Below, piece after piece: positions 1 through 30,635 of a DNA stretch of 49,636 nucleotides. How positions within the stretch are numbered: the stretch's first letter is position 1; every line of letters begins with the position of its first letter. The stretch covers positions 1-49,636 of the forward strand of contig JAJXZW010000015.1 of NCBI GenBank assembly GCA_021779855.1, read 5' to 3'. A model generated the notes under the pieces. That model did no database searches. It was not told where the DNA came from and saw only the letters and a list, made by a program, of their open reading frames with translations. Both the position numbers and the translations under genes were made by a program. This DNA is from Actinomycetes bacterium (GTDB lineage: Bacteria > Actinomycetota > Acidimicrobiia > Acidimicrobiales > RAAP-2).

Positions 1-339
1 CTTCATCGCTCGCGAGGTCCACGGCAGAGTGATGGCAGATTTCCGTGCGCGAGAGTCAGTCAATGAGGCTGCATGACCAACTATTGACATATAGGGGCAT
101 CAACGCGATGATGGAGAGCTTCTGGTCGTCCATGCAGATCGAGCTGCTCGACCGCAAGCACTGGAGGACGCGACTCGAGCTGACCAACGCCATGTTCGAC
201 TACATCGAGGTCTTCTACAATCGCCAGCGACGCCACTCGTCACCCGACTACGTGTCACCGGTCGAGTTCGAGCTGTCGCTGACAACCCAGACCGCCTGAA
301 CTCAAGAGCCAAGGTGGAAAAGAAATCTGGGGCAGGTCA
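1..339 (+). mobile_element. Right-end fragment of an IS3-family insertion sequence
   Basis: The fragment holds the last part of an IS3 OrfB transposase (stop at 297-299) followed by 40 bp that end in GGCAGGTCA at 331-339. A terminus ending in CA, with a GGGCAGGTCA-like end, is typical of right inverted repeats in this family. The next base begins sequence homologous to a serine integrase, so the element appears to have inserted into that older integrase gene. The left end is outside the window or lost, so neither the matching inverted repeat nor the target duplication can be checked. Bases 1-44 show nothing recognisable. Confidence 0.6.
45..299 (+). pseudogene. IS3-family transposase (OrfB), C-terminal remnant
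   Basis: The last 63 residues have the standard IS3 OrfB ending: NAMMESFW carries the final glutamate of the DDE triad, followed by FDYIEVFYNRQRRHSS and a YVSPVEFE tail. A full OrfB is about 280-300 residues, so most of the rve catalytic core is missing. Upstream in this frame there is a TGA at 30-32, and the residues before GINAMM do not match the usual DNA-binding and first-aspartate regions. The copy is therefore truncated or rearranged at its 5' side and should be inactive. The apparent GTG start at 45 is not a biological start. Confidence 0.75.
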
Positions 340-514
340 ACCTGTCAATTAAAGCGACAGCAGTCCCAAGAGCGCCGCGTACTCGCCGGGGACCTGCTCG
401 ACTCGATCTGGTTCTACCCCGACCACATTGCGGTGCAGGTAGTTGGGGCGCCTCCGGTGAAGGTACTTCCGGAGGAGGTCGGGCTCCGTGGTAGCAGACC
501 TGTCGTGTCGGAGA
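340..514 (+). pseudogene. Large serine recombinase (integrase), C-terminal remnant of an older element
   Basis: Reading from 340, the frame gives QERRVLAGDLLDSIWFYPDH then IAVQVVGAPPVKVLPEEVG. This aligns with the C-terminus of the intact integrase at 5191-6624, which reads KERRVLVEELLEVVTVFPDH then LEVKVAGVPSLNVLYGEVG. The remnant starts where the IS3 fragment ends and its homology stops at the 10-bp repeat at 505-514. The frame stays open to 627, but that later part is non-homologous element sequence read through by chance. I infer that this is the integrase end of an earlier element that used the same tRNA-Leu site, later cut by the IS and separated from the tRNA by a second integration. 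Confidence 0.7.
505..514. repeat. Left attachment-site core of the 6.1-kb element (attL-like)
   Basis: The 10 bases GTGTCGGAGA recur at 6605-6614, where they form part of the 3' acceptor stem of tRNA-Leu(GAG). Here they follow integrase-like sequence, exactly as they do at the other copy. Short shared cores fit large serine integrases, whose crossover sites share only a few bases. Ten bases alone could be chance; the support comes from the matching context, an integrase C-terminus ending at both copies. Confidence 0.6.
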
Positions 515-559
515 TCCAAATCGCACAGTTACCGAGTGGCGCCTCGACCCCTGGCTTGG

Positions 560-1237
560 CTAATCCGAGAACGAAACCTCGACACCCCTCGCGGCGAGCA
601 TGTTCAGCCACTCTCGGCTTGTCTTAGATCCCGCGGGGCAAATGAGAGTGAAGAGGTCACTTCGCTCTACACCGCCGGGGCTGGTCAACCATCCAACGAC
701 TATGAACGGGTCTTCCGACGATGCGCGCGAGAAGGCCTCTTCGTGTGCCCGAATGATCACTTCCGTGAGATTCGTCTTCGGAAACAACCTCGCAGAGTTC
801 ACTAAGTGCCACGCATAGCCCAGGACTCCGTTGAGAGATTCCCCCTTGGGATAGAACTCGAGCCTGGGGAGGATGCCGAGGTGGTCGTCACCGGCGACAA
901 AGGTCCCGGACTTGACTCCTCCGATTGCGAACTCAATCCAGCCATCGGCAGAAAAAGTTGGGGCGTTCAACCACGGCGGAGGCTGTTTGGCTCTAGGCAC
1001 GACTTGTGCAGTTGCCGGGACTTGCTGTGCTCGGGTGAGGCAGTTGATTCTCGGTATCGGCAGAGTCTGACGTATACGAGAGAATGTTGCGCAAGTTTCG
1101 GATCAACTCTTCGGCCGCGGCTTCGGACTGGGAGGTCGGGACCCAGCTTTGTTCTGGGCCGGCACTGCGCCCTTCTTAAAGGGCTGTTTGGAACCGGTCT
1201 TCGATGTGCGCCGCGCAGAGGGCGTCTTTTGTGTCAT
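560..1237 (-). pseudogene. Hypothetical cargo protein interrupted by an in-frame TGA
   Basis: An ATG at 1237-1235 overlaps the DUF6338 stop in an ATGA arrangement, which argues for translational coupling. The first 44 residues are basic and rich in Pro, Lys and Ser. A TGA at 1105-1103 then stops the frame, which stays open afterwards for 180 more codons down to 560. The downstream part (from GTG 1000, 146 residues) looks like a real folded protein, with segments such as GWIEFAIGGVKSGTF and DPFIVVGWLTS. I do not recognise the family. Either a nonsense mutation broke a 225-residue protein, or only the downstream part is translated, or there is a sequence error. The position in the operon suggests a partner of the two upstream genes. 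Confidence 0.5.
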
Positions 1238-1884
1238 TGCTTGGCATCATAGACATGAACCGCTCGAACATTCCGGAGTTCCGGGATCAGGACTCCCGAC
1301 GTTTCAGGGATAGGTTCCGAAAAGTCTCCGTTGCTGTCGAGGATCCATTCCACATTGATGAAGACACCGCGGGGTTCAGGTGTCGTGAAGAACATTCCCC
1401 CATCGCTGTCACACACACCTCCGATCATTCTGTGGTCGTCAAATTCGACCACTAAGTACTTCCCGTCCAACCGGCCGTCGAGAACTGCCCAATCCCAAAG
1501 CGAAGGTGCGACCCAGTCATTGACAAAGAAGTGCAGAAGTCTTCTCGGCCATCTTTCGTGATTCGCTGACGCGATATACCAGTTTGTGGCCTTTGCCCAG
1601 ATTGTCCCTGCAACTACGGGGATAGCAAGCGTGACAGTAAGCAGCCAATAGATGAGAAGTCTCCAATTGTGTGGCAGGTGGTGACGATGGCGGACAATCC
1701 ACATCTCGGTAAGCGGCGACACTGCCACCTGAATTATGAGGCTTATCGCAATCGACTGAATTATGGTGCGAAAGTCTGAGGGGTGGCCTCGCCAGGTCAT
1801 GTTGCGAGACCAAATCGAGGTCGCAATGTATCCGGGGACGATCGCGAGAAGGATGAGAATGAGGGCGGTCCAGGTCGTGGGCAA
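1234..1884 (-). CDS. DUF6338 family membrane protein
   Basis: The protein has 216 residues. Three hydrophobic stretches lie at roughly 6-24, 40-62 and 76-97, followed by a soluble C-terminal domain containing SLWDWAVLDGRLDGKYLVVE and a GVLIPELRNVRAV ending. The layout and the W-D plus GKYLVVEF signature resemble DUF6338, whose function is unknown to me. The start is a TTG preceded by AGGAG with 8 bases between, which decides the start. It lies 97 bp downstream of the OLD-like ATPase gene and overlaps the next gene by 4 bp, so the three probably form one transcript. A membrane partner beside an ATPase/TOPRIM-like protein is compatible with a defence role, but this is inference. Confidence 0.65.
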   Translation of the reverse strand: MPTTWTALILILLAIVPGYIATSIWSRNMTWRGHPSDFRTIIQSIAISLIIQVAVSPLTEMWIVRHRHHLPHNWRLLIYWLLTVTLAIPVVAGTIWAKATNWYIASANHERWPRRLLHFFVNDWVAPSLWDWAVLDGRLDGKYLVVEFDDHRMIGGVCDSDGGMFFTTPEPRGVFINVEWILDSNGDFSEPIPETSGVLIPELRNVRAVHVYDAKQ

Positions 1885-1981
1885 GAAATGCTCCTAGCAG
1901 TGGGGAGTGAGGATCAATCCGCGGTCCGCAGATCCGGTTTGGGGTGCGCAGCCTGTATCACAGCACCCACAAAGTGCATCG

Positions 1982-3505
1982 TCACGAAGGCGTGTCCAGA
2001 GAATCGGCTTCGTTGGCTTGCCGAGCGATTGCCTCAAGCGCTTCAATGACATTTCCTGCCGAGTCAGCCAACTCCTTACTGGCCACAGAGGGGTTGGCGA
2101 GTGCCCACTCAACAACCGTTTCCGCAAGCTTGCCTTTGCGCCTAGATCGGTCGAGCGAGTTGTCTACTGCGAGAACATCATCGACTTCTGAAGAAAATCT
2201 CGGTGGATAGAACTCTTCAAAGTTGTGAGCCGAAAATTGAGAGAAGTGCTGTGGGTTCCAGGTCTTGTATTTCGCCTGCAGTTTCTCGATTACAGTCCGT
2301 TCGTCCTTCCCGCCGTCAATTAGGACCCAGACACGATCCTGTTTTTCGGTCTTATGCAGGGAAAGGATTGTTCTAGAGAGCTCGTCGACCAGTGACTCGG
2401 TCTTTGTGAAGCCCCCGGAGGCGAGAGTGGTGAACTGGGCAAGCTGAGGAACGAAGTTCGGGATGATGATGTCGCGAATAACTCGCTCAGCGCTGCTCTC
2501 CTCAAGAATGATCCAGCCAGGTGGGAGCTCCCATTGGAAACCCATCCGTTCCAACGCGTCGCGTCGGCCCAAGGTGTCGAGGGGTCCGAGTATGTGTGTG
2601 ATGGGGACATCGGGCGACGTATCTTGGAAGACCTCGTAAACCGCGGCCTTGGGGTCGCCCCCGAAGAACCTAACAACCAGATCGGAATGGGTGCTGATGA
2701 GGAATTGGCTGTTCTCGGCGTGCTCTGCGATGACTGTGAGGAGTGCCCTCAGTGCCGCCGGATGGAGGTCAGACTCAGGTTCCTCCATGAGGAAGATGTA
2801 CTCGCCTCCCCGCGCAATCTCCGCGAGGACATCCGCGGCGGACCGCATACCGTCGCCCATTCTGGTGATGGGGACCTTTTGGCCGCTCCCCAGGGTGTAT
2901 CCGGGGAGGACACCATTTGCCACCGAAATCGTTCTGACGACTTTCCCGAGCACGCGGCGACTTATTGACTCGTACTTCTCACGCAGACCGTCTGCTGACT
3001 CCAGCGCTTCGTAGATCTTTGACGTCAGATTCGAATCATTACCGCCCACGAAGTCTGCGGCTGAGCTTGAAACGTTGTTGTTGAACGCGGGGCCACGTCG
3101 ATCGTTGAAAAACGGCATAAACATGGTGGTGGCGCGTTGGTAGCCGGGTGCAAGATACAGCGCTCTGTCGGGATGTCCCACGCGAAGTTGGTAACTCTCC
3201 CAGCCGAGGTTTCTCTTTCGAGACCTCACAATCTCTATTCGGTCGCCATCGGCCAGCGGATGTGGGTCGATCGATGGTGGAATAGCAGAATCTGGGAATG
3301 TCAGGGCGACCTTGAAGGCTTCGCAGGAAACCGTAATGTCATCGTCGTCAAACGGATAGCCGTCTTGTAGATGGGCGACGGCGCGGAGAATCGAACTTTT
3401 TCCAGCATCGTTCGGCCCCACAAAGATGGTGATTGGCTTGAGTGAGAGTGTTCCCGAATCCGCGATTGAGCGGTAACCCTCGATTCTCAATTCGTCTGCG
3501 TACAC
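1982..3505 (-). CDS. OLD-like AAA ATPase with C-terminal TOPRIM-like region
   Basis: The protein has 507 residues from a GTG preceded by a G-rich Shine-Dalgarno sequence; a longer frame starting at 3538 lacks this support. Walker A GPNDAGKS is at residues 30-37, Walker B IFLMEEPESDLHP at about 235-247 and the H-loop LISTHSD at about 270. These are ABC/SMC-type ATPase features found in OLD, RecF and AAA_21 proteins. The C-terminal part has an acidic ILEES near 335, LIDGGKDE near 395 and HNFEEF near 428, in the order expected of a TOPRIM nuclease, although the DxD motif is not canonical. OLD-like proteins often act in phage or plasmid defence. The gene diverges from the HTH regulator and leads a three-gene operon. 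Confidence 0.75.
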   Translation of the reverse strand: MYADELRIEGYRSIADSGTLSLKPITIFVGPNDAGKSSILRAVAHLQDGYPFDDDDITVSCEAFKVALTFPDSAIPPSIDPHPLADGDRIEIVRSRKRNLGWESYQLRVGHPDRALYLAPGYQRATTMFMPFFNDRRGPAFNNNVSSSAADFVGGNDSNLTSKIYEALESADGLREKYESISRRVLGKVVRTISVANGVLPGYTLGSGQKVPITRMGDGMRSAADVLAEIARGGEYIFLMEEPESDLHPAALRALLTVIAEHAENSQFLISTHSDLVVRFFGGDPKAAVYEVFQDTSPDVPITHILGPLDTLGRRDALERMGFQWELPPGWIILEESSAERVIRDIIIPNFVPQLAQFTTLASGGFTKTESLVDELSRTILSLHKTEKQDRVWVLIDGGKDERTVIEKLQAKYKTWNPQHFSQFSAHNFEEFYPPRFSSEVDDVLAVDNSLDRSRRKGKLAETVVEWALANPSVASKELADSAGNVIEALEAIARQANEADSLDTPS

Positions 3506-3591
3506 CTCGCACCCCCCGGAATCGCAATTATCCCGCAAAGCTGGGCCGGTGCTTCATGATGCACGTCATCGCTCGGCGACCTCGCAGTCGC

Positions 3592-3597
3592 TATTAT
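3592..3597 (+). promoter_or_regulatory. -10 box of the HTH regulator gene (leaderless)
   Basis: TATTAT lies 6 bases before the ATG at 3604, so transcription would start at or next to the start codon. There is no Shine-Dalgarno sequence. The bases GCGAGTAT at 3598-3605 between box and start recur in inverted form at 4024-4031 in the rep promoter, which suggests a common regulator. No clear -35 is visible. Confidence 0.5.
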
Positions 3598-3603
3598 GCG
3601 AGT

Positions 3604-3987
3604 ATGACTGCAGATTTCCGTTCGTCGCCAATGGAAACTCCAGAGGGACAGGGTCGGGCCGAGAAGTTGTGGAACGCCTACGTGAAGGCCGTAGACCGGC
3701 ACACTCCCCCGTTTGTCAGGCGAGGAGCTCAAGAGCTCGTGAAGCCAGTTGCTCGGCAAACGGTCGAGGACATGGTGGGATTCTGGGTTATGTGGCACCT
3801 ATACGGCGGATTCGAGGGGCTCCAAGACTTTGGGATGCACAAGTCGACCATTTGGCGCAAAGTCCGGATGTTCCGGATAATGACCGGCGAACACCCCGAC
3901 GTGTACCAAATGCCTGGTATTACCGTGGATCCCGCGGCCTATTGGTCCTCCGGACGTACCAAGGTGGGTCCCCCGCCGAAGGATTAG
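3604..3987 (+). CDS. Small HTH-like regulatory protein of the integrated element
   Basis: The product has 127 residues. The region with GFWVMWHLYGGFEGLQDFGM followed by HKSTIWRKVRMFR reads as a helix-turn-helix in which STIWRKVRMFR would be the recognition helix. The upstream frame to 3442 overlaps the divergent ATPase gene and is less likely to be translated. The start at 3604 fits a leaderless transcript. It sits between the cargo operon and rep, the usual place for an element's master repressor, and the palindrome downstream at 4007-4022 is a plausible target. The DNA-binding role is inferred from sequence pattern only. Confidence 0.6.
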   Translation: MTADFRSSPMETPEGQGRAEKLWNAYVKAVDRHTPPFVRRGAQELVKPVARQTVEDMVGFWVMWHLYGGFEGLQDFGMHKSTIWRKVRMFRIMTGEHPDVYQMPGITVDPAAYWSSGRTKVGPPPKD

Positions 3988-3998
3988 CACTCTCGCTG

Positions 3999-4028
3999 TT
4001 GCGAGTACTACACCGGTGTAGTTATACT
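3999..4028 (+). promoter_or_regulatory. Promoter/operator of the replication gene
   Basis: A -35-like TTGCGA (3999-4004) and a -10 TATACT (4023-4028) are separated by 18 bp. Of these, 16 bp (4007-4022) form the perfect palindrome ACTACACCGGTGTAGT. An outer pair, GCGAGTA at 4001-4007 and TACTCGC at 4025-4031, extends the symmetry. A repressor bound in the spacer would block RNA polymerase directly. The -10 box ends 7 bases before the rep ATG, so the transcript is probably leaderless. Confidence 0.7.
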
Positions 4029-4035
4029 CGCAGCC

Positions 4036-5094
4036 ATGCGAGTAACAGCAATCCGGGAGTTGTCGGCGGGGGTGGACGCGCTCTACCTCTCCGCCCGCGC
4101 TTCGCTGCCCGCTGGACTCTTGGAACGCCTGGATCGTGCCCGCCGACTGGCCGAGGAGACTCCCCCCAGCCCCCCCTTCCGATTCGGAGCCGAAGAGTTC
4201 GAAGTAGCGGCCAGAGGTTGGGGGAAGTACCGCTACTCTCTTCGCCACCCCTACGTGCAGCTCGGCTTCACGCCGAGCCCGGTTCTTCCGTCCGTTCGAA
4301 TCCAACCGCGTGCCGAGGCTCTTCACGGGATGGGGGCTGCTGGGGTTGTGACGTGGGTCCGGGACCTGTTGGAAGGTGAAGTCGGACCAGCCAGACTGGC
4401 GGTGACGCGCCTCGACCTATACGCGGACTTCCAGGGCTGGGAGTTGGCCGTGGACTCGCGCCACGAGTTCACCTGTCGGGCGAAGGCGTTGCACGCCTAT
4501 GAGGACGGCGACGAGTTCAATGGCCTGACCTTCGGCAACCGCGGTGCGGCTTCCATCCACGCACGCCTGTACAACAAGACCGCGGAGATCAAGGTCTCGG
4601 GTGCCTCCTACTGGCCCTCGATCTGGGGAAGGGCCTACGACCCCGATGAGAGCGTTCTGCGGGTCGAGTACGAGGTCGGGCGTGACGTTCTTCGTCAGTA
4701 CGGGGTGAAGGAGCCCCAGGAGGTCCTGGACGCCGCAGGGGCCATCTGGGCAGACCTGACGGGCGCGTGGCTTGTCCACCGGGTCCCCACGGGTGACGCC
4801 ACCAAGTCGCGGTGGCCCGTCTCTGATGTGTGGCGGGCGGTCCAGCGGGCCTCGCTCGCTGAGGGCGCCCAGGGGCTCAAACGGGTGTACCTCGGCGTTC
4901 GCCGCGGCGGGATCGAGAACCTGACGCCCGCCCTCTTCGGGTACCTCGCGAGCTTCGGCGCGTACGCGGGGGCTAAGGACATGAACGAGATCCTCCCCTA
5001 CCTCGCCTTCTTCATGGACCGCGAGGAGGCGAGGACCGGGCGCACGTTCGAAGAGCGCATCGTGGCCAAGCGCCGCGAGATCGGACTGCCGTGA
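4036..5094 (+). CDS. Replication initiation protein (Rep_trans / rolling-circle type)
   Basis: The protein has 352 residues. The central core, with AVTRLDLYADFQ around 118-129, SIHARLYNKTAEIK around 174-187 and LRVEYEVGRDVLRQYG around 215-230, matches the replication initiation factor family (Rep_trans, PF02486 type) found on rolling-circle plasmids and filamentous phages. The family normally uses a tyrosine to nick the double-strand origin; the Y of LYNKTAEIK is the best candidate, but I cannot assign it firmly. The ATG at 4036 fits the leaderless promoter just upstream. The stop overlaps a small downstream frame by 4 bp and lies 96 bp before the integrase start. It probably allows replication of the excised circle. 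Confidence 0.75.
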   Translation: MRVTAIRELSAGVDALYLSARASLPAGLLERLDRARRLAEETPPSPPFRFGAEEFEVAARGWGKYRYSLRHPYVQLGFTPSPVLPSVRIQPRAEALHGMGAAGVVTWVRDLLEGEVGPARLAVTRLDLYADFQGWELAVDSRHEFTCRAKALHAYEDGDEFNGLTFGNRGAASIHARLYNKTAEIKVSGASYWPSIWGRAYDPDESVLRVEYEVGRDVLRQYGVKEPQEVLDAAGAIWADLTGAWLVHRVPTGDATKSRWPVSDVWRAVQRASLAEGAQGLKRVYLGVRRGGIENLTPALFGYLASFGAYAGAKDMNEILPYLAFFMDREEARTGRTFEERIVAKRREIGLP

Positions 5095-5225
5095 GCACGG
5101 GTCCGGACTACGGCCGCGTGGTAGACGTGATCGTGGGCGTCGTGTTGCGCAGCTTCTTGGGGGACGACGACGACTCGGAAGGGGGGCTCGGTGCTAACAG
5201 TGGCGTACTGCCGCGTGTCGACTGA
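5091..5225 (+). CDS. Possible small protein between rep and integrase
   Basis: A GTG overlaps the rep stop (GTGA) and opens a 44-residue frame with a hydrophobic segment VVDVIVGVVLRSFLG followed by an acidic DDDDSE run. It runs 35 bp into the integrase gene in another frame. The overlap suggests translational coupling, and small coupled genes are common in such elements. There is no recognisable domain, and the frame may be chance in GC-rich DNA. I do not know a function. Confidence 0.3.
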   Translation: MSTGPDYGRVVDVIVGVVLRSFLGDDDDSEGGLGANSGVLPRVD

Positions 5226-6624
5226 CGAGCAGGCGGACGAGGGGTACTCGATCGAGGGTCAGGCGGACAAGGCCCGTCAGTACGCTTCGCTTCGTGACCT
5301 CGGCGAGGTAACGGTCATCGCGGACCCGGGGATGTCGGGGAAGAACGTCCACCGTCCGGGCCTCCAGCAGCTCATTTTGGCGGTCGAGTCGGGTCACGTG
5401 ACCAACGTCGTCGTCTGGCGTTTGGACCGGCTCTCACGCAACGTGCGCGATCTCCAAGAACTCGATTCACTGTTCTCTCAACACGGGGTGGCCCTCCACT
5501 CGGTCTCGGAGAACCTGGACCTCTCCAGCGCTGCGGGGCGCATGTTCTTCAACATCCTCGGGACCTTCGCCCAATACTTCCGCGAGCAGCTCTCCGAGAA
5601 CGTGTCCATGGGGATCGAGCGGGCCGTGAACGAAGGTCGATGGATGAACCGGCCCAAGACCGGCTACGGCATGGTCGAGGGTCAGCTTCTCCCTAACGAC
5701 GACGCGGCTCGCGTGAGGGAGGTCTACCGCCTCCGGATCGAAGGGCTCAGCTATCGGGCGATCGAGGAACGAGTCGGCATCAGGTACTCGACGGTGAAAG
5801 CCATCCTCGATTCTCGTATCTACCTCGGTGAGGTTCTGCTAAATGGGACATGGCACCCGGGGCTCCATGAGCCCCTCGTCACGGCAGAGGAGTGGGACGC
5901 GGCGCGCAAGGGGCACTCCGCCGGGGTCAGGCGCTCCGGCGACGTGCTGTCGGGACGGGTCCTCTGCGGGGTGTGCGGTAGGCGCATGAACGTCCAGCAG
6001 AACGGCCAGGGCTCCGTCAGCTACAAGTGCTGGCACCGTGGCCAAGGGTGTGACCAGCCATCGCGGAGTAACCGAGGGCTCGCCCGTGCGGTCGTCCACG
6101 GGCTCTCGCTCCTGAGGTCTGACGAGTCGCTCCGAGAGGCGATTCGCCGGCGGCTGGCCGGGCGGGCCCGCCCCGCGCCGGGCGTGGCGCGGCGGGGCCG
6201 CCGGACCGCCCCGGCTGACGCCCTCGCAGCCCTCTCAGAGAAGCGCCGGAAGCTCTTGGACCTCCACTACGCGGGTCGGATCTCAGCGGAGGGTTTCGCG
6301 GAGGAGGAGCAGCGCTTGCTGGCGGCCATTGGGGCTACGCGTGAGCAGGTGGCCCTGGAGGGCGCGTCAGAGGCCCTGGAAGCCGACCTGGAGGATAAGT
6401 TCGAGCGGGTGGCGAAGATCCTGCAGGAGCTCGACATCGAGAGGGTCTGGGCCGCGGCGACGGACAAGGAGCGGCGGGTACTCGTCGAGGAACTGCTGGA
6501 AGTCGTCACCGTCTTCCCCGACCACCTCGAAGTGAAGGTCGCGGGCGTCCCGAGCCTGAACGTCCTCTACGGCGAGGTAGGGATGAGGGAGTCGGAGACT
6601 GTTGGTGTCGGAGACGGGACTTGA
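5191..6624 (+). CDS. Large serine recombinase (site-specific integrase)
   Basis: The protein has 477 residues. The N-terminal resolvase domain begins VAYCRVSTDEQ with the nucleophilic serine at residue 10, followed by VVVWRLDRLSRNVRDL near 70. A recombinase domain follows at about 155-250, then a zinc ribbon with CGVCGRRM and KCWHRGQGC around 260-290, then a coiled-coil-prone helix (about 340-440). The start is a GTG preceded by GGAAGGGGG. The last 7 codons lie inside the 3' end of tRNA-Leu(GAG), so the crossover falls within or right at the end of its own gene. It should integrate and excise the element at that tRNA. A diverged C-terminal homologue survives at 340-514. Confidence 0.9.
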   Translation: MLTVAYCRVSTDEQADEGYSIEGQADKARQYASLRDLGEVTVIADPGMSGKNVHRPGLQQLILAVESGHVTNVVVWRLDRLSRNVRDLQELDSLFSQHGVALHSVSENLDLSSAAGRMFFNILGTFAQYFREQLSENVSMGIERAVNEGRWMNRPKTGYGMVEGQLLPNDDAARVREVYRLRIEGLSYRAIEERVGIRYSTVKAILDSRIYLGEVLLNGTWHPGLHEPLVTAEEWDAARKGHSAGVRRSGDVLSGRVLCGVCGRRMNVQQNGQGSVSYKCWHRGQGCDQPSRSNRGLARAVVHGLSLLRSDESLREAIRRRLAGRARPAPGVARRGRRTAPADALAALSEKRRKLLDLHYAGRISAEGFAEEEQRLLAAIGATREQVALEGASEALEADLEDKFERVAKILQELDIERVWAAATDKERRVLVEELLEVVTVFPDHLEVKVAGVPSLNVLYGEVGMRESETVGVGDGT

Positions 6625-6689
6625 ACCCACACGCCCTTTCGGGCACCAGCCCCTCAAGCTGGCGCGTCTGCCTATTCCGCCACTCCGAC
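6603..6689 (-). tRNA. tRNA-Leu (anticodon GAG)
   Basis: The acceptor strands GTCGGAG (6689-6683) and CTCCGAC (6613-6607) pair perfectly. The D-arm is GCG...CGC, and the anticodon stem CCAGC/GCTGG encloses the loop TTGAGGG with anticodon GAG. A long class II variable arm and a T-arm with GTTCAAGTC follow. The discriminator A is at 6606 and CCA is encoded at 6605-6603. It reads CUC and CUU codons. The gene is intact and serves as attachment site for the element on its 3' side; the integrase reading frame runs 22 bp into it. Confidence 0.95.
6605..6614. repeat. Right attachment-site core (attR-like) inside the tRNA 3' end
   Basis: GTGTCGGAGA matches 505-514. On the minus strand it comprises the acceptor-stem end CTCCGAC, the discriminator A and two bases of the encoded CCA. 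A partial second copy, GTCGGAGAC, lies 16 bp to the left at 6591-6599 and could be part of the integrase binding site. Confidence 0.6.
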
Positions 6690-8644: not shown

Positions 8645-9418
8645 TCAGCGGTTAGCAGCGTAGCAGTCGTCGAGGGCGCGACAGACCGCATGGAACGCCT
8701 CGGCCCGCAGGCTGGCCCCGCCGACCAGGAAGCCGTCCACCGCCCCGTCGTGGGCCAGCTCCGCGGCGTTCTCGGCGCTCACCGAGCCGCCGTAGAGGAC
8801 GGGAGCGTCGACGCCCAGATCCGCGAGCGTGGCGCGGATCGAGCGGTTCTGCGCCGCCACCTGGGCCGCCTCGGCGACGACCCCGGTCCCGATGGCCCAC
8901 AGGGGCTCGTAGGCGACGGTGACGTGGGCCCGGGCGCCCTCGGCCAGCCCCGCGAGGGCGGCGCGCAGCTGCTCGGCGACGAAGGCCGCCTCCCCGCCGG
9001 CCTCGCGCACCTCGAGGCCCTCACCCACGCACAGGATCGCTCGCAGCCCGGCCCCGGCGACCCGGGCCAGCGTGCGCGCGACGAGGGCGTCGTCCATCCC
9101 GTAGAGCCGGCGGCGCTCGGAGTGGCCGACGATGACCGCGCGCACCCCGAGGCGCTCGAGCATCGCGAGCGATACCTCCCCGGTGTGCGCCCCGGACTCG
9201 TGCTCGTTCACGTGCTGGGCGCACAGCACGAGGCCCAGGCGGTCGGCCTCGATGACCGAGCCCACGCTGCGCAGGTCGACGAAGGGCGGCGCGACGCCCA
9301 CCTCGACGTGCTCGAGGGGCGAACGGCGCAGCAGCACGCCCAGCTGCTGGGTGAGGTGGATGGCCTCGACGACGTCGAGGTTCATCTTCCAGTTCCCGTA
9401 GACGGCGGGCGCGGCCAT
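8645..9418 (-). CDS. tpiA: Triosephosphate isomerase
   Basis: The protein has 257 residues, the normal family length, and interconverts dihydroxyacetone phosphate and glyceraldehyde 3-phosphate in the cytoplasm. The substrate-binding GNWKMN is at residues 8-13, the catalytic histidine in GHSERR near 100, the catalytic glutamate in AYEPLWAIGTG near 173, and the phosphate-binding YGGSV near 217. The ATG overlaps the pgk stop (TGATG), so the two are translationally coupled. Confidence 0.97.
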   Translation of the reverse strand: MAAPAVYGNWKMNLDVVEAIHLTQQLGVLLRRSPLEHVEVGVAPPFVDLRSVGSVIEADRLGLVLCAQHVNEHESGAHTGEVSLAMLERLGVRAVIVGHSERRRLYGMDDALVARTLARVAGAGLRAILCVGEGLEVREAGGEAAFVAEQLRAALAGLAEGARAHVTVAYEPLWAIGTGVVAEAAQVAAQNRSIRATLADLGVDAPVLYGGSVSAENAAELAHDGAVDGFLVGGASLRAEAFHAVCRALDDCYAANR

Positions 9419-10550
9419 CAGTCGAAGGGGCTCTCGCGCAGCGCCCGCAGCCCGGGCAGGTCGCCCTCTTCGACGAGCCGGAGCGTCGCGCCCCCGCCCG
9501 TCGAGACGAAGGTCACCGCCTCGCGCAGCCCCAGGGCGTCGAGGGCGGCCGCCGAGTCGCCCCCGCCGACGACGCTCACCGCCTCGCTCGCCGCGACGGC
9601 CTGGGCGACCGCCTTGGTGCCGGCCATGAAGCGGGGGTCCTCGAAGACCCCCATCGGCCCGTTCCACAGGATCGAGCCGGCCCCCTCGAGCGCCGCGGTG
9701 AAGACGGCCACGGTCCGCGGGCCGATGTCGAGCGCCGTGAAGCCGTCCGGGACGTCCGCCGCGAAGTCGACGGCGCGGGCCTCGCCCCCGCCCGTCCCGA
9801 AGGGCGCCCCGGTGGGCAGCCCCCGGGCGTCGACCGGGACAACGACGGTGCCGCTCTTGAGGAGCGCCCGACACTCCTCGAGCCGGCTCGGGTCGACCAG
9901 GCTGTCGCCGACCCGGCGCCCGTCGGCCAGCGCGAAGGTGTGGGCCATCCCCCCGCCGACGAGCACGAGGTCGGCCCTCTCGGCGAGCACCCGCACCAGG
10001 CCGATCTTGTCCTTCACCTTGGCCCCGCCGACGATGGCGACGAAGGGCCGCCGGGGGCTCTCGAGCAGACCCAGGATCGTCTCGGCCTCGTGGGCCAGGT
10101 TGGGCCCGGCCGCGCTGGGCACGAGGCGCGGGGGCACCACGATCGAGGCGTGGGACCGGTGCGAGGCGCCGAAGGCCTCGTTGACGTAGTAGTCGACGCC
10201 CTCGACCAGCCGCGCGCCGAAGACCGGGTCGCAGGCCTCCTCGCCCGGATCGAAGCGCAGGTTCTCCATCAGCTCCACGCCCGGGCAGAGCGCCTCGAGC
10301 GCTCGGCGCACCGGCTCGACGCTGTACCGCGGGTCGACGCGCCCCTCGGGCCGGCCGAAGTGGGTGCAGGCCACCACGCGCGCCCCGCGGGCGAGCAGGT
10401 CGGTGAGCAGTGGCAGCGCCGCGCGCAGCCGGAAGTCGTCGGCCACCACGACCTCGCCGCCGCGCTCGGTGACCGGTACGTTGAAGTCGACCCGCACCAG
10501 CACCCGCTTGCCGGCCAGGTCGCCCCAGCGCGCGGGTGACGGCAGGGGCC

Positions 10551-30474: not shown

Positions 30475-30558
30475 GCCCGGATGGCGGAATCGGTAGACGC
30501 GGAGGCCTCAAAAGCCTTTACTCGCAAGGGTGTGTGGGTTCGAGTCCCACTCCGGGCA
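30475..30558 (+). tRNA. tRNA-Leu (anticodon CAA)
   Basis: The acceptor GCCCGGA pairs with TCCGGGC (30551-30557), with discriminator A at 30558. The D-arm is GCG...CGC, the anticodon loop CTCAAAA gives anticodon CAA for UUG codons, and a long class II variable arm and T-arm GTTCGAGTC follow. CCA is not encoded. An open frame of the fabD gene runs across it but the real fabD start is downstream. Confidence 0.95.
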
Positions 30559-30635
30559 CGCGAGGGGCGCCGTGAGGGCCCGCCGGCCCGCGCGGCTTCG
30601 GTCGCACGGAGCCCAGAGGGCGCGGACCGCGCGAG

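What the first reader, a model, noticed from the sequence alone, without database searches (positions are those of the whole stretch)
340..6689. Two serine-integrase elements used the same tRNA-Leu(GAG) site in succession
An integrase C-terminal remnant (340-514) ends at the same 10 bases, GTGTCGGAGA, at which the intact integrase meets the tRNA (6605-6614). This is what results if element A integrated first and element B then integrated between A and the tRNA. The two C-termini are homologous but diverged, so this is not a simple duplication. It gives precise ends for a 6.1-kb element.
Basis: partly seen in the sequence, partly recalled or inferred. Interest (0 to 1): 0.7.

Follow-up and report, generated by a model that had tools for sequence, protein, structure and literature searches.

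The report
Serine-integrase gene-cassette arrays at tRNA-Leu
Two mobile elements really are stacked beside a leucine tRNA gene here, and relatives of this uncultured bacterium carry long rows of mostly single-gene cassettes joined at the same short recombination site, which looks like an integron-style gene store run by a different class of recombinase.

Summary
A serine-integrase C-terminal remnant (about 364-504) ends at GTGTCGGAGA (505-514), and the intact integrase (5191-6624) meets tRNA-Leu(GAG) at the same ten bases (6605-6614). The remnant ends in GGTAGCAGACCTG, the junction of a second integrase type (A) that sits directly on this tRNA in other species. Element B (6.1 kb) is therefore the newest insertion. 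A was not the first: a relative's empty-site flank (G004) matches contig C1 near 4989, so the stack is probably at least 11.6 kb. The larger finding lies in the genus. Left of tRNA-Leu(GAG), and at other loci, the same core plus a conserved left arm recurs (up to 77 arm matches per genome, nearly always on one strand within a locus). It separates cassettes of median 0.8 kb (183 of 197 without an integrase match) and quantised 66-70-bp units. The arm model hits 43 of 61 genus genomes and 0 of 39 from other families. Some cassettes are shared between species with ends at the cores. Core position 10 follows the host tRNA allele (54 of 56). I read this as an integron-like cassette array built by tRNA-targeting serine integrases. 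Mobility of integrase-less cassettes is inferred, not shown.

The parts
45..299 (+). C-terminal end of an IS3-family (rve) transposase; the insertion sequence truncates integrase A and forms the contig end
   Evidence: Pfam rve_2 E 4.6e-11, rve_3; window 294-367 resembles C1 1895-1968, beside another IS3-type transposase
364..504 (+). C-terminal remnant of a serine integrase, element A (start uncertain)
490..514 (+). Right half-site of element A (type-A P arm) running into the core; the same motif lies directly on tRNA-Leu(GAG) in six other species (integrase or remnant also detected in five of them)
   Evidence: (13 of 15 positions of the type-A arm)
505..514 (+). Left core of element B, GTGTCGGAGA; predicted exchange dinucleotide GA at 513-514
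   Evidence: the dinucleotide is inferred from half-site symmetry
505..548 (+). Left arm (type II) of element B
   Evidence: R2 match 505-546, E 3.2e-7, but this row is one of the 11 that built R2; 0.63 identity to the type-II consensus
563..1000 (-). Cargo ORF, no family found above cut-off
1237..1884 (-). Cargo: DUF6338 protein
   Evidence: Pfam PF19865 E 6.4e-21
1985..3538 (-). Cargo: OLD/AriA-like AAA ATPase, candidate defence gene
   Evidence: Pfam AAA_21 E 1.3e-23; PADLOC AriA E 1.8e-24; none of the four other element ORFs scanned matched PADLOC
3604..3984 (+). Small ORF of element B, no convincing family; a homolog of the longer overlapping ORF lies in an integrase-remnant element of G011 (L083)
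4036..5094 (+). 352-aa protein, tentatively Rep-like, also present in the type-B element of G025 and upstream of related integrases in L181 and L184
   Evidence: PHROG endonuclease family E 6.9e-7; G025 homolog; L184 and L181 43% and 41% identical
5191..6624 (+). Intact type-B serine integrase (Resolvase, Recombinase and zinc-ribbon domains); last codons and stop lie in the tRNA gene
   Evidence: Pfam Resolvase E 3.7e-37, Recombinase, Zn_ribbon_recom; PHROG 95 integrase E 2.4e-92
6590..6611 (+). Right half-site (P arm) of element B
   Evidence: 14 of 15 positions of the type-II arm in inverted orientation
6605..6614 (+). Right core of element B within the tRNA 3' end
6603..6689 (-). tRNA-Leu(GAG), CCA encoded: the attachment gene

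Best explanation
Window 513-6612 is a 6.1-kb integrative element (B) inserted by its own serine integrase into the 3' end of tRNA-Leu(GAG). It is the newest unit of a stack. The unit before it (A) carried a related integrase with its own half-site, and older units lie on contig C1. Each insertion keeps the tRNA intact and leaves a junction made of the previous unit's right end, the core (T)CGGAGR and the new unit's left arm. In related species the same junctions (core plus type-I or type-II left arm) separate many small, mostly integrase-less gene cassettes and 66-70-bp gene-less units, so the site works as a cassette-array platform. Integrases arriving with autonomous elements recognise the arm, exchange strands at the central GA/GG dinucleotide, and join cassette circles at the tRNA or at other junctions. 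Shown by sequence: the junctions, the half-site inverted repeats of integrase-bearing elements, the position-10 match with the host tRNA, cassette sharing between species with ends at cores, and the uniform strand of sites relative to the tRNA. Inferred: that the integrase acts on one-sided junctions, that integrase-less cassettes still move, the circular intermediate and the exact exchange point.
For: Type-A and type-B integrases abut this tRNA in relatives, and each right half-site is an inverted repeat of the left arm of its own element type. Tandem A-B-tRNA with both intact in G030. Empty site in G004 against G000:C1, and synteny of C1 with the left flank in G033. Arm model R1: 43 of 61 genus genomes (14 of the 43 supplied its training arms), 0 of 39 outside; strict pattern 44 of 99 genus genomes, reversed-pattern control 0 of 99. 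Nearly all sites on one strand per locus. 52 of 261 gaps are 59-70 bp, none 71-119. 183 of 197 gene-size intervals have no integrase match. 118 of 138 cassettes under 1.3 kb have one ORF covering at least half, against 114 of 414 shuffles. Ends of cross-species identity blocks lie at sites: left 27 and right 43 of 136, control mean 5.7 and 6.3, 0 of 1000. A 2,053-bp block is 95.7% identical in G005 and G074, whose tRNA-flanking ABC protein is 55% identical. Core position 10 equals the host tRNA allele in 54 of 56 sites, Fisher p 9e-13.
Against: No excised circle, split read or experiment. Right ends of gene cassettes are not conserved (1.2 bits at -20 to -4 against 23.8 bits in the arm); only 26 of 174 show a recognisable right half-site, against 5 of 870 shuffles, so a classical two-armed attP cannot be rebuilt for most. 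Only 5 of 68 cross-species blocks coincide with sites at all four ends. Core quality does not fall with distance from the tRNA (73 sites, rho -0.02, p 0.88), so no age gradient was seen. Several arrays are not next to the tRNA (G073:C10 51-118 kb, tRNA at 277.5 kb). 20 of the 56 sites of the position-10 test come from one genome. The genomes are MAGs; the window's own array is short.
Confidence: 0.78

Rival explanations
1. Ordinary tandem accretion: successive serine-integrase islands decayed in place (CIME-like), and the small units are relics, not mobile cassettes. No cassette system exists beyond the autonomous elements.
For: Integrase C-terminal remnants end at junctions. Known precedent with the same logic in Dehalococcoides ssrA islands, including islands without integration genes (PMC3146451 passages), and the CIME model (PMC5704250 passages). 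Most cassettes have no recognisable right half-site.
Against: Random decay does not predict mostly single-ORF units, a sharp 66-70-bp class, arms kept at up to 77 sites in a genome, or cassettes far more alike than the flanking gene with ends at the cores. Only 7 of 197 intervals held an integrase remnant by tblastn. Decay of cores with distance was not seen.
Confidence: 0.35
2. A true integron: tyrosine integron integrase with folded attC sites; the serine integrases are bystanders.
For: Cassette sizes, cargo of integron type (GNAT, methyltransferases, glyoxalases, GrpB, CPT) and a 66-70-bp spacer resemble integrons. Two fold measures on 23 units of 69 bp were borderline: top-strand energy reached by 5 of 100 column shuffles, bottom-strand covariation term by 4 of 100.
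Against: Integron integrase family TIGR02249: 0 of 61 genomes over the cut-off; the sub-threshold matches also ring in all 14 control genomes, none of which is a positive control. The other two fold measures were unremarkable (64 and 37 of 100), and the best top-strand helix only pairs the arm with the next core. The arm equals the half-site of the tRNA-abutting serine integrases. No cassette strand bias (101 to 92).
Confidence: 0.03
3. The two junctions in the window arose by IS-mediated deletion, duplication or misassembly and not by two integrations.
For: Both contig ends concerned are in insertion sequences; MAG assembly.
Against: The type-A end with core recurs at 10 independent places, six directly on the tRNA. 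A viral-collection contig (L180) has GGTAGCAGACCTGTC, core and a type-II-like arm, followed 2.6 kb later by a type-B-like integrase.
Confidence: 0.04

Closest known systems
Dehalococcoides ssrA-specific genomic islands (PMC3146451; passages seen)
   Same: Serine recombinase; tandem islands at an RNA-gene 3' end; short direct repeats; some islands without integration genes; integrase gene running into the RNA gene.
   Different: There a CcrB-type enzyme with an integration module, 20-bp repeats, tmRNA target, over a dozen repeats within 100 kb. Here single phage-type serine integrases, tRNA-Leu(GAG), mostly single-gene units of about 0.8 kb, a quantised 66-70-bp unit and up to 77 arm matches per genome.
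Integron and superintegron cassette arrays (recalled; search listing only)
   Same: Rows of small single-gene cassettes sharing a recombination site; similar kinds of cargo; gene-less cassettes; a fixed platform site.
   Different: Serine and not tyrosine recombinase; no convincing folded attC; the platform is a tRNA gene; the integrase rides in a unit of the array; cassette orientation random.
SCC / SCCmec composite islands (recalled)
   Same: Serine recombinases and tandem units at one site, some lacking recombinase genes.
   Different: Different target gene, Ccr enzymes, units of tens of kb.
tRNA-targeting phage serine integrases (PHROG 95)
   Same: Sequence family; a related integrase lies on a viral contig with a major head protein gene, L183.
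   Different: Here 183 of 197 site-bounded intervals lack an integrase match and carry host-type cargo.

Membership tests
Large serine integrase (phage-type) | Resolvase catalytic domain, Recombinase domain and zinc ribbon in one protein | tested here: met
   Y6, R8, V9, S10, T11 invariant in 12 sequences (that S10 is the catalytic serine is recalled)
Large serine integrase (phage-type) | attP with inverted half-sites around a short exchange site that matches attB | tested here: met
   Half-site symmetry; position-10 match 54 of 56. The cleavage point itself was not tested.
Tandem-accreted tRNA/RNA-gene islands | Successive units bounded by copies of the RNA-gene end, newest at the gene | tested here: met
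CIME (cis-mobilisable, integrase-less unit with functional att sites) | Both flanking att sites functional | not testable with these tools
   Left arms conserved, right ends mostly not
Integron | IntI tyrosine recombinase present | tested here: not met
   0 of 61 genomes over the TIGR02249 cut-off; no positive control in the set
Integron | attC site with conserved single-strand fold | tested here: inconclusive
   No convincing fold in 23 units of 69 bp, two of four measures borderline; no Rfam match in three arrays. No attC model was available.
Integron | Array of mostly single-gene cassettes sharing a recombination site | tested here: met
SCC element | ccr genes and rlmH target | not tested
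   Target here is tRNA-Leu(GAG); no ccr search was made

The most novel reading that the evidence does not exclude
A serine-recombinase counterpart of the integron: a tRNA gene is the fixed capture site, a 50-bp one-sided arm (core plus a single integrase half-site) is the cassette recombination site, and wandering integrase elements capture, shuffle and spread single-gene cassettes in trans through a whole bacterial genus.
Probability: 0.5. Interest if true: 0.88.

Novelty: new variant of a known kind. Interest (0 to 1): 0.72.

Why it matters
Integrons are the textbook way in which bacteria bank and shuffle single genes. A second such system, built on serine integrases and a tRNA gene, would show that cassette banking evolved more than once, give new serine integrases with predicted att sites (GA and GG dinucleotides) for genome engineering, and open a gene pool (acetyltransferases, methyltransferases, chloramphenicol-phosphotransferase-like and aminoglycoside-nucleotidyltransferase-like genes) in uncultivated actinobacteria. 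It also makes a question testable: whether a serine integrase can recombine sites with only one proper half-site.

Tried and rejected
Rejected: chance (and the extended motif). Duplication of B's end: the junction is of type A and the remnant is not closest to B (E-values level). True integron. Folded attC-like site: on 23 units of 69 bp RNAalifold gave, against 100 column shuffles, top strand energy 5 and covariation 64 as good, bottom strand energy 37 and covariation 4 as good; not convincing, not fully excluded. Known RNA family: none at gathering threshold in L116, L102, L100. Age gradient along the array: no correlation. Exact type-I arms in viral contigs: 0. Defence-island reading: among 130 main cassette ORFs only two PADLOC families matched at E 1e-5, mad2 in five members and PDC-S07 in one; the ATPase in element B hits AriA/OLD/Gabija models, but four other ORFs of the element match nothing there.

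Unresolved: why the 66-70-bp units are so regular (41 of 163 gene cassettes are followed by one). Whether arrays far from the tRNA are rearranged pieces or insertions at other sites.

The ten paper searches listed no description of serine-integrase gene-cassette arrays; they cover only open-licence PMC papers and no preprints. Two papers were opened, as passages only; all others were seen as listings.
Full report
Observation. The window is the whole of contig C44 of a 2.06-Mb genome assembly in 51 contigs. tRNA-Leu(GAG) lies at 6603-6689 minus and a 477-aa serine integrase at 5191-6624 ends inside it. A C-terminal integrase remnant lies at about 364-504, directly before GTGTCGGAGA (505-514), which occurs only there and at 6605-6614 in the window (0.22 expected). 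Upstream the remnant is cut by the end of an IS3-family transposase.

Which elements. In 31 relatives' loci plus the window, each with tRNA-Leu(GAG) (the set was chosen from genomes with the flanking ABC-transporter gene, plus two added because of an integrase hit; five loci whose contigs end before the tRNA were left out), 13 of 32 have an intact integrase or integrase C-terminus ending at the tRNA. Two integrase types share the site: type B (62-66% identical to the window's where it abuts the tRNA) and type A (44-47%). Each has its own junction. Type A ends ..GGTTGCAAACCTG before TGGTGTCGGAG, and type B ends ..TCGGANNNTGT or similar before TGGTGTCGGAG. The window's remnant ends GGTAGCAGACCTG and so belongs to type A by its junction; by protein the evidence is weaker. 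The motif with the core is found at 10 other places: six directly on the tRNA (G018, G003, G007, G021, G080, G071, with an integrase or remnant detected in all but G007) and four elsewhere (G065, G008, G063 and viral-collection contig L180). In G030 both integrases are intact in the order A, B, tRNA. So B went in after A, between A and the tRNA.

A was not the first. G000 contig C1 starts with insertion sequences and a second OLD-like ATPase, then has three arm matches at 4175-4989 on the minus strand (E 1.8e-8, 9.9e-8 and 0.0018). In G033 the homologs of C1 8.7-20 kb lie in the same order 1.7-13 kb left of the tRNA, so C1 reversed is the likely left neighbour of C44. At C1 about 4989 the sequence GGATTCGTGG..CCCACTGNATGGTGTCGGAGACG matches G004, where that flank runs straight into the tRNA (46 bp, 84.8%, E 4.6e-7); G004 has no arm match anywhere. 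G004 is thus an empty site and the true left boundary in G000 is on C1. The stack measures at least 4,989 plus an unknown gap plus 6,604 bp. In G001 the 70-bp unit homologous to C1 4146-4222 (77 bp, 88%) lies directly on the tRNA, which places the later insertions of G000 on the tRNA side. The flank match is short, and the join of C1 to C44 is inferred from synteny, not from reads.

The sites. The half-sites of integrase-bearing elements are inverted repeats: type A CCGACACCACAGGTTTGCAACC on the right against CCGACGCAACAGGTCTGCCACC on the left; type B CCGACACCAACAATCTCCGACT against CCGACATCAACAATCTCCGACT (the left forms are consensus strings). The window's left junction pairs a type-A right half (13 of 15) with a degenerate type-II left arm, its right junction a type-B right half (14 of 15) with the tRNA. 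The centre of symmetry is positions 9-10 of the core, GA or GG. Across 56 intact array cores with type-I or type-II arms in 17 genomes with a known tRNA, position 10 equals the host tRNA allele in 54 (36 A/A, 18 G/G, 2 mismatches; Fisher p 9e-13), as expected if this dinucleotide must match for strand exchange. Cores in one genome are not independent (20 are from G073), so the p-value is generous.

Cassette arrays in the genus. Left of the tRNA many relatives carry further cores, each followed by a conserved arm. A model of 33 type-I arms (R1) hits 43 of 100 genomes, all 43 among the 61 of this genus and none of 39 from other families of the order; 14 of the 43 supplied its training arms. Per genome it reaches 77 in G063, 47 in G073 and 43 in G074 at E 0.001. 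A strict pattern with up to 3 mismatches hits 44 of 99 genus genomes, its reversed control none. Within a locus nearly all sites lie on one strand. In 44 loci without overlaps, 261 gaps between successive sites fall into two classes: 52 of 59-70 bp (50 of them 66-70), none of 71-119 bp, and mostly 0.4-3 kb for the rest (175), with 18 longer. In 197 intervals of 200-6500 bp the median is 814 bp and 193 hold an ORF of 60 aa or more; 7 hold a full integrase, 7 a remnant and 183 no integrase match. Below 1.3 kb the largest ORF covers at least half in 118 of 138, against 114 of 414 dinucleotide shuffles. The largest ORF points either way (101 to 92). G017 (28 sites) has no match to integrase B at all in its draft genome.

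Cargo. Of 20 cassette proteins scanned singly, 17 had a Pfam match at E 0.01, some below the curated cut-off. Examples above it are a chloramphenicol phosphotransferase-like protein, an aminoglycoside-2''-adenylyltransferase-like protein, methyltransferases, a glyoxalase, GrpB, a pentapeptide-repeat protein, a TetR regulator and a cation-efflux protein. Of 130 main ORFs (those covering half a cassette and at least 80 aa), 9 match GNAT acetyltransferases, 6 DUF4232, 5 methyltransferases and 5 glyoxalases; 87 Pfam families in all at E 1e-4, of which the first 25 were listed. These are family names, not tested functions.

Cassettes as units of transfer. Nucleotide blocks of 250 bp or more shared by different genomes start and stop at the sites more often than placed at random (left ends 27, right ends 43 of 136; control means 5.7 and 6.3; 0 of 1000 shifts reach either, 68 of 90 blocks used). 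Examples: 1,234 bp at 94.3% in G008 and G063 (flanking ABC protein 78% identical), 2,053 bp at 95.7% in G005 and G074 (flanking protein 55%), 611 bp at 78.7% in G011 and G031 from core to core. The 5.2-kb block shared by G029 and G074 is not informative, since those genomes are close (95%). Only 5 of 68 blocks coincide with sites at all four ends.

One-sided sites. Aligned at the core, 174 gene-cassette right ends hold 1.2 bits over positions -20 to -4, while the left arm holds 23.8 bits over 40 positions. So the conserved site is core plus one half-site, in contrast to the two-armed sites of the integrase-bearing elements. This is the least understood feature: either the integrases accept one-sided junctions, or most cassettes are no longer mobile.

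Integrase family elsewhere. Of 51 named loci with the integrase or a distant relative, 17 are titled Acidimicrobiaceae bacterium, several with isolate names palsa, fen or bog, which I take for peat sites; most of the rest with high identity are other actinobacterial MAGs. In viral contigs five loci (L180-L184) have the integrase at 59-66% identity; one of the three examined (L183) also has a major head protein, so related enzymes serve phages or phage-like elements.

Comparison with known systems. Dehalococcoides ssrA islands (PMC3146451, passages) are the nearest precedent: tandem islands at an RNA gene, serine recombinase reading into the gene, some islands without integration genes. The three-step CIME accretion model (PMC5704250, passages) covers the window itself. 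What neither covers is the scale and regularity: mostly single-gene units, the 66-70-bp class and a shared arm at dozens of sites. Integron membership fails on the enzyme; the fold test is inconclusive but unconvincing. The array nevertheless works like one on paper.

Verdict. The finding is confirmed and its succession of insertions supported; its claim that A came first is not. The window is a modest example of a genus-wide array system that the ten paper searches did not show as described.

Noticed in passing
G000:C1:2056-3627 (locus L128) and window 1985-3538: Two OLD/AriA-like AAA ATPase genes in the same tRNA-Leu stack, in different units; parts of the surrounding DNA are similar.
   Followed up: partly
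L119 5623 and 7092, L112 12323, L077 10693 (oriented coordinates): Array loci carrying 52-63 bp copies of the tRNA-Leu 3' half, possibly spare attB sites or another class of element.
   Followed up: partly
L070 12374, L107 8278, L113 2862, L090 1984, L092 3671 (oriented coordinates): A third arm type, CCGACGTGAACCCGCAC or close to it, that imitates the tRNA T-arm; integrases of L094-L097 end beside it with a different core.
   Followed up: partly
66-70-bp units, e.g. L116 (oriented 12330, 13084), L114 6351-6483: Gene-less units of fixed length with a partly conserved right end (CTGATTG), sometimes in tandem; function unknown.
   Followed up: partly
L183 (IMGVR_UViG_3300037114_000291), 9251-10492: Major head protein gene on a contig with a type-B-like integrase and a tRNA-Leu 3' fragment: perhaps a small phage or satellite using the same site.
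   Followed up: partly
G073:C10 51-118 kb; G074:C11 88-192 kb: Arm sites, all on one strand, far from tRNA-Leu(GAG), which lies at C10 277.5 kb in G073 and beside the ABC gene on C29 in G074.
   Followed up: no
window 30475-30559 (+): tRNA-Leu(CAA), not examined for elements.
   Followed up: no
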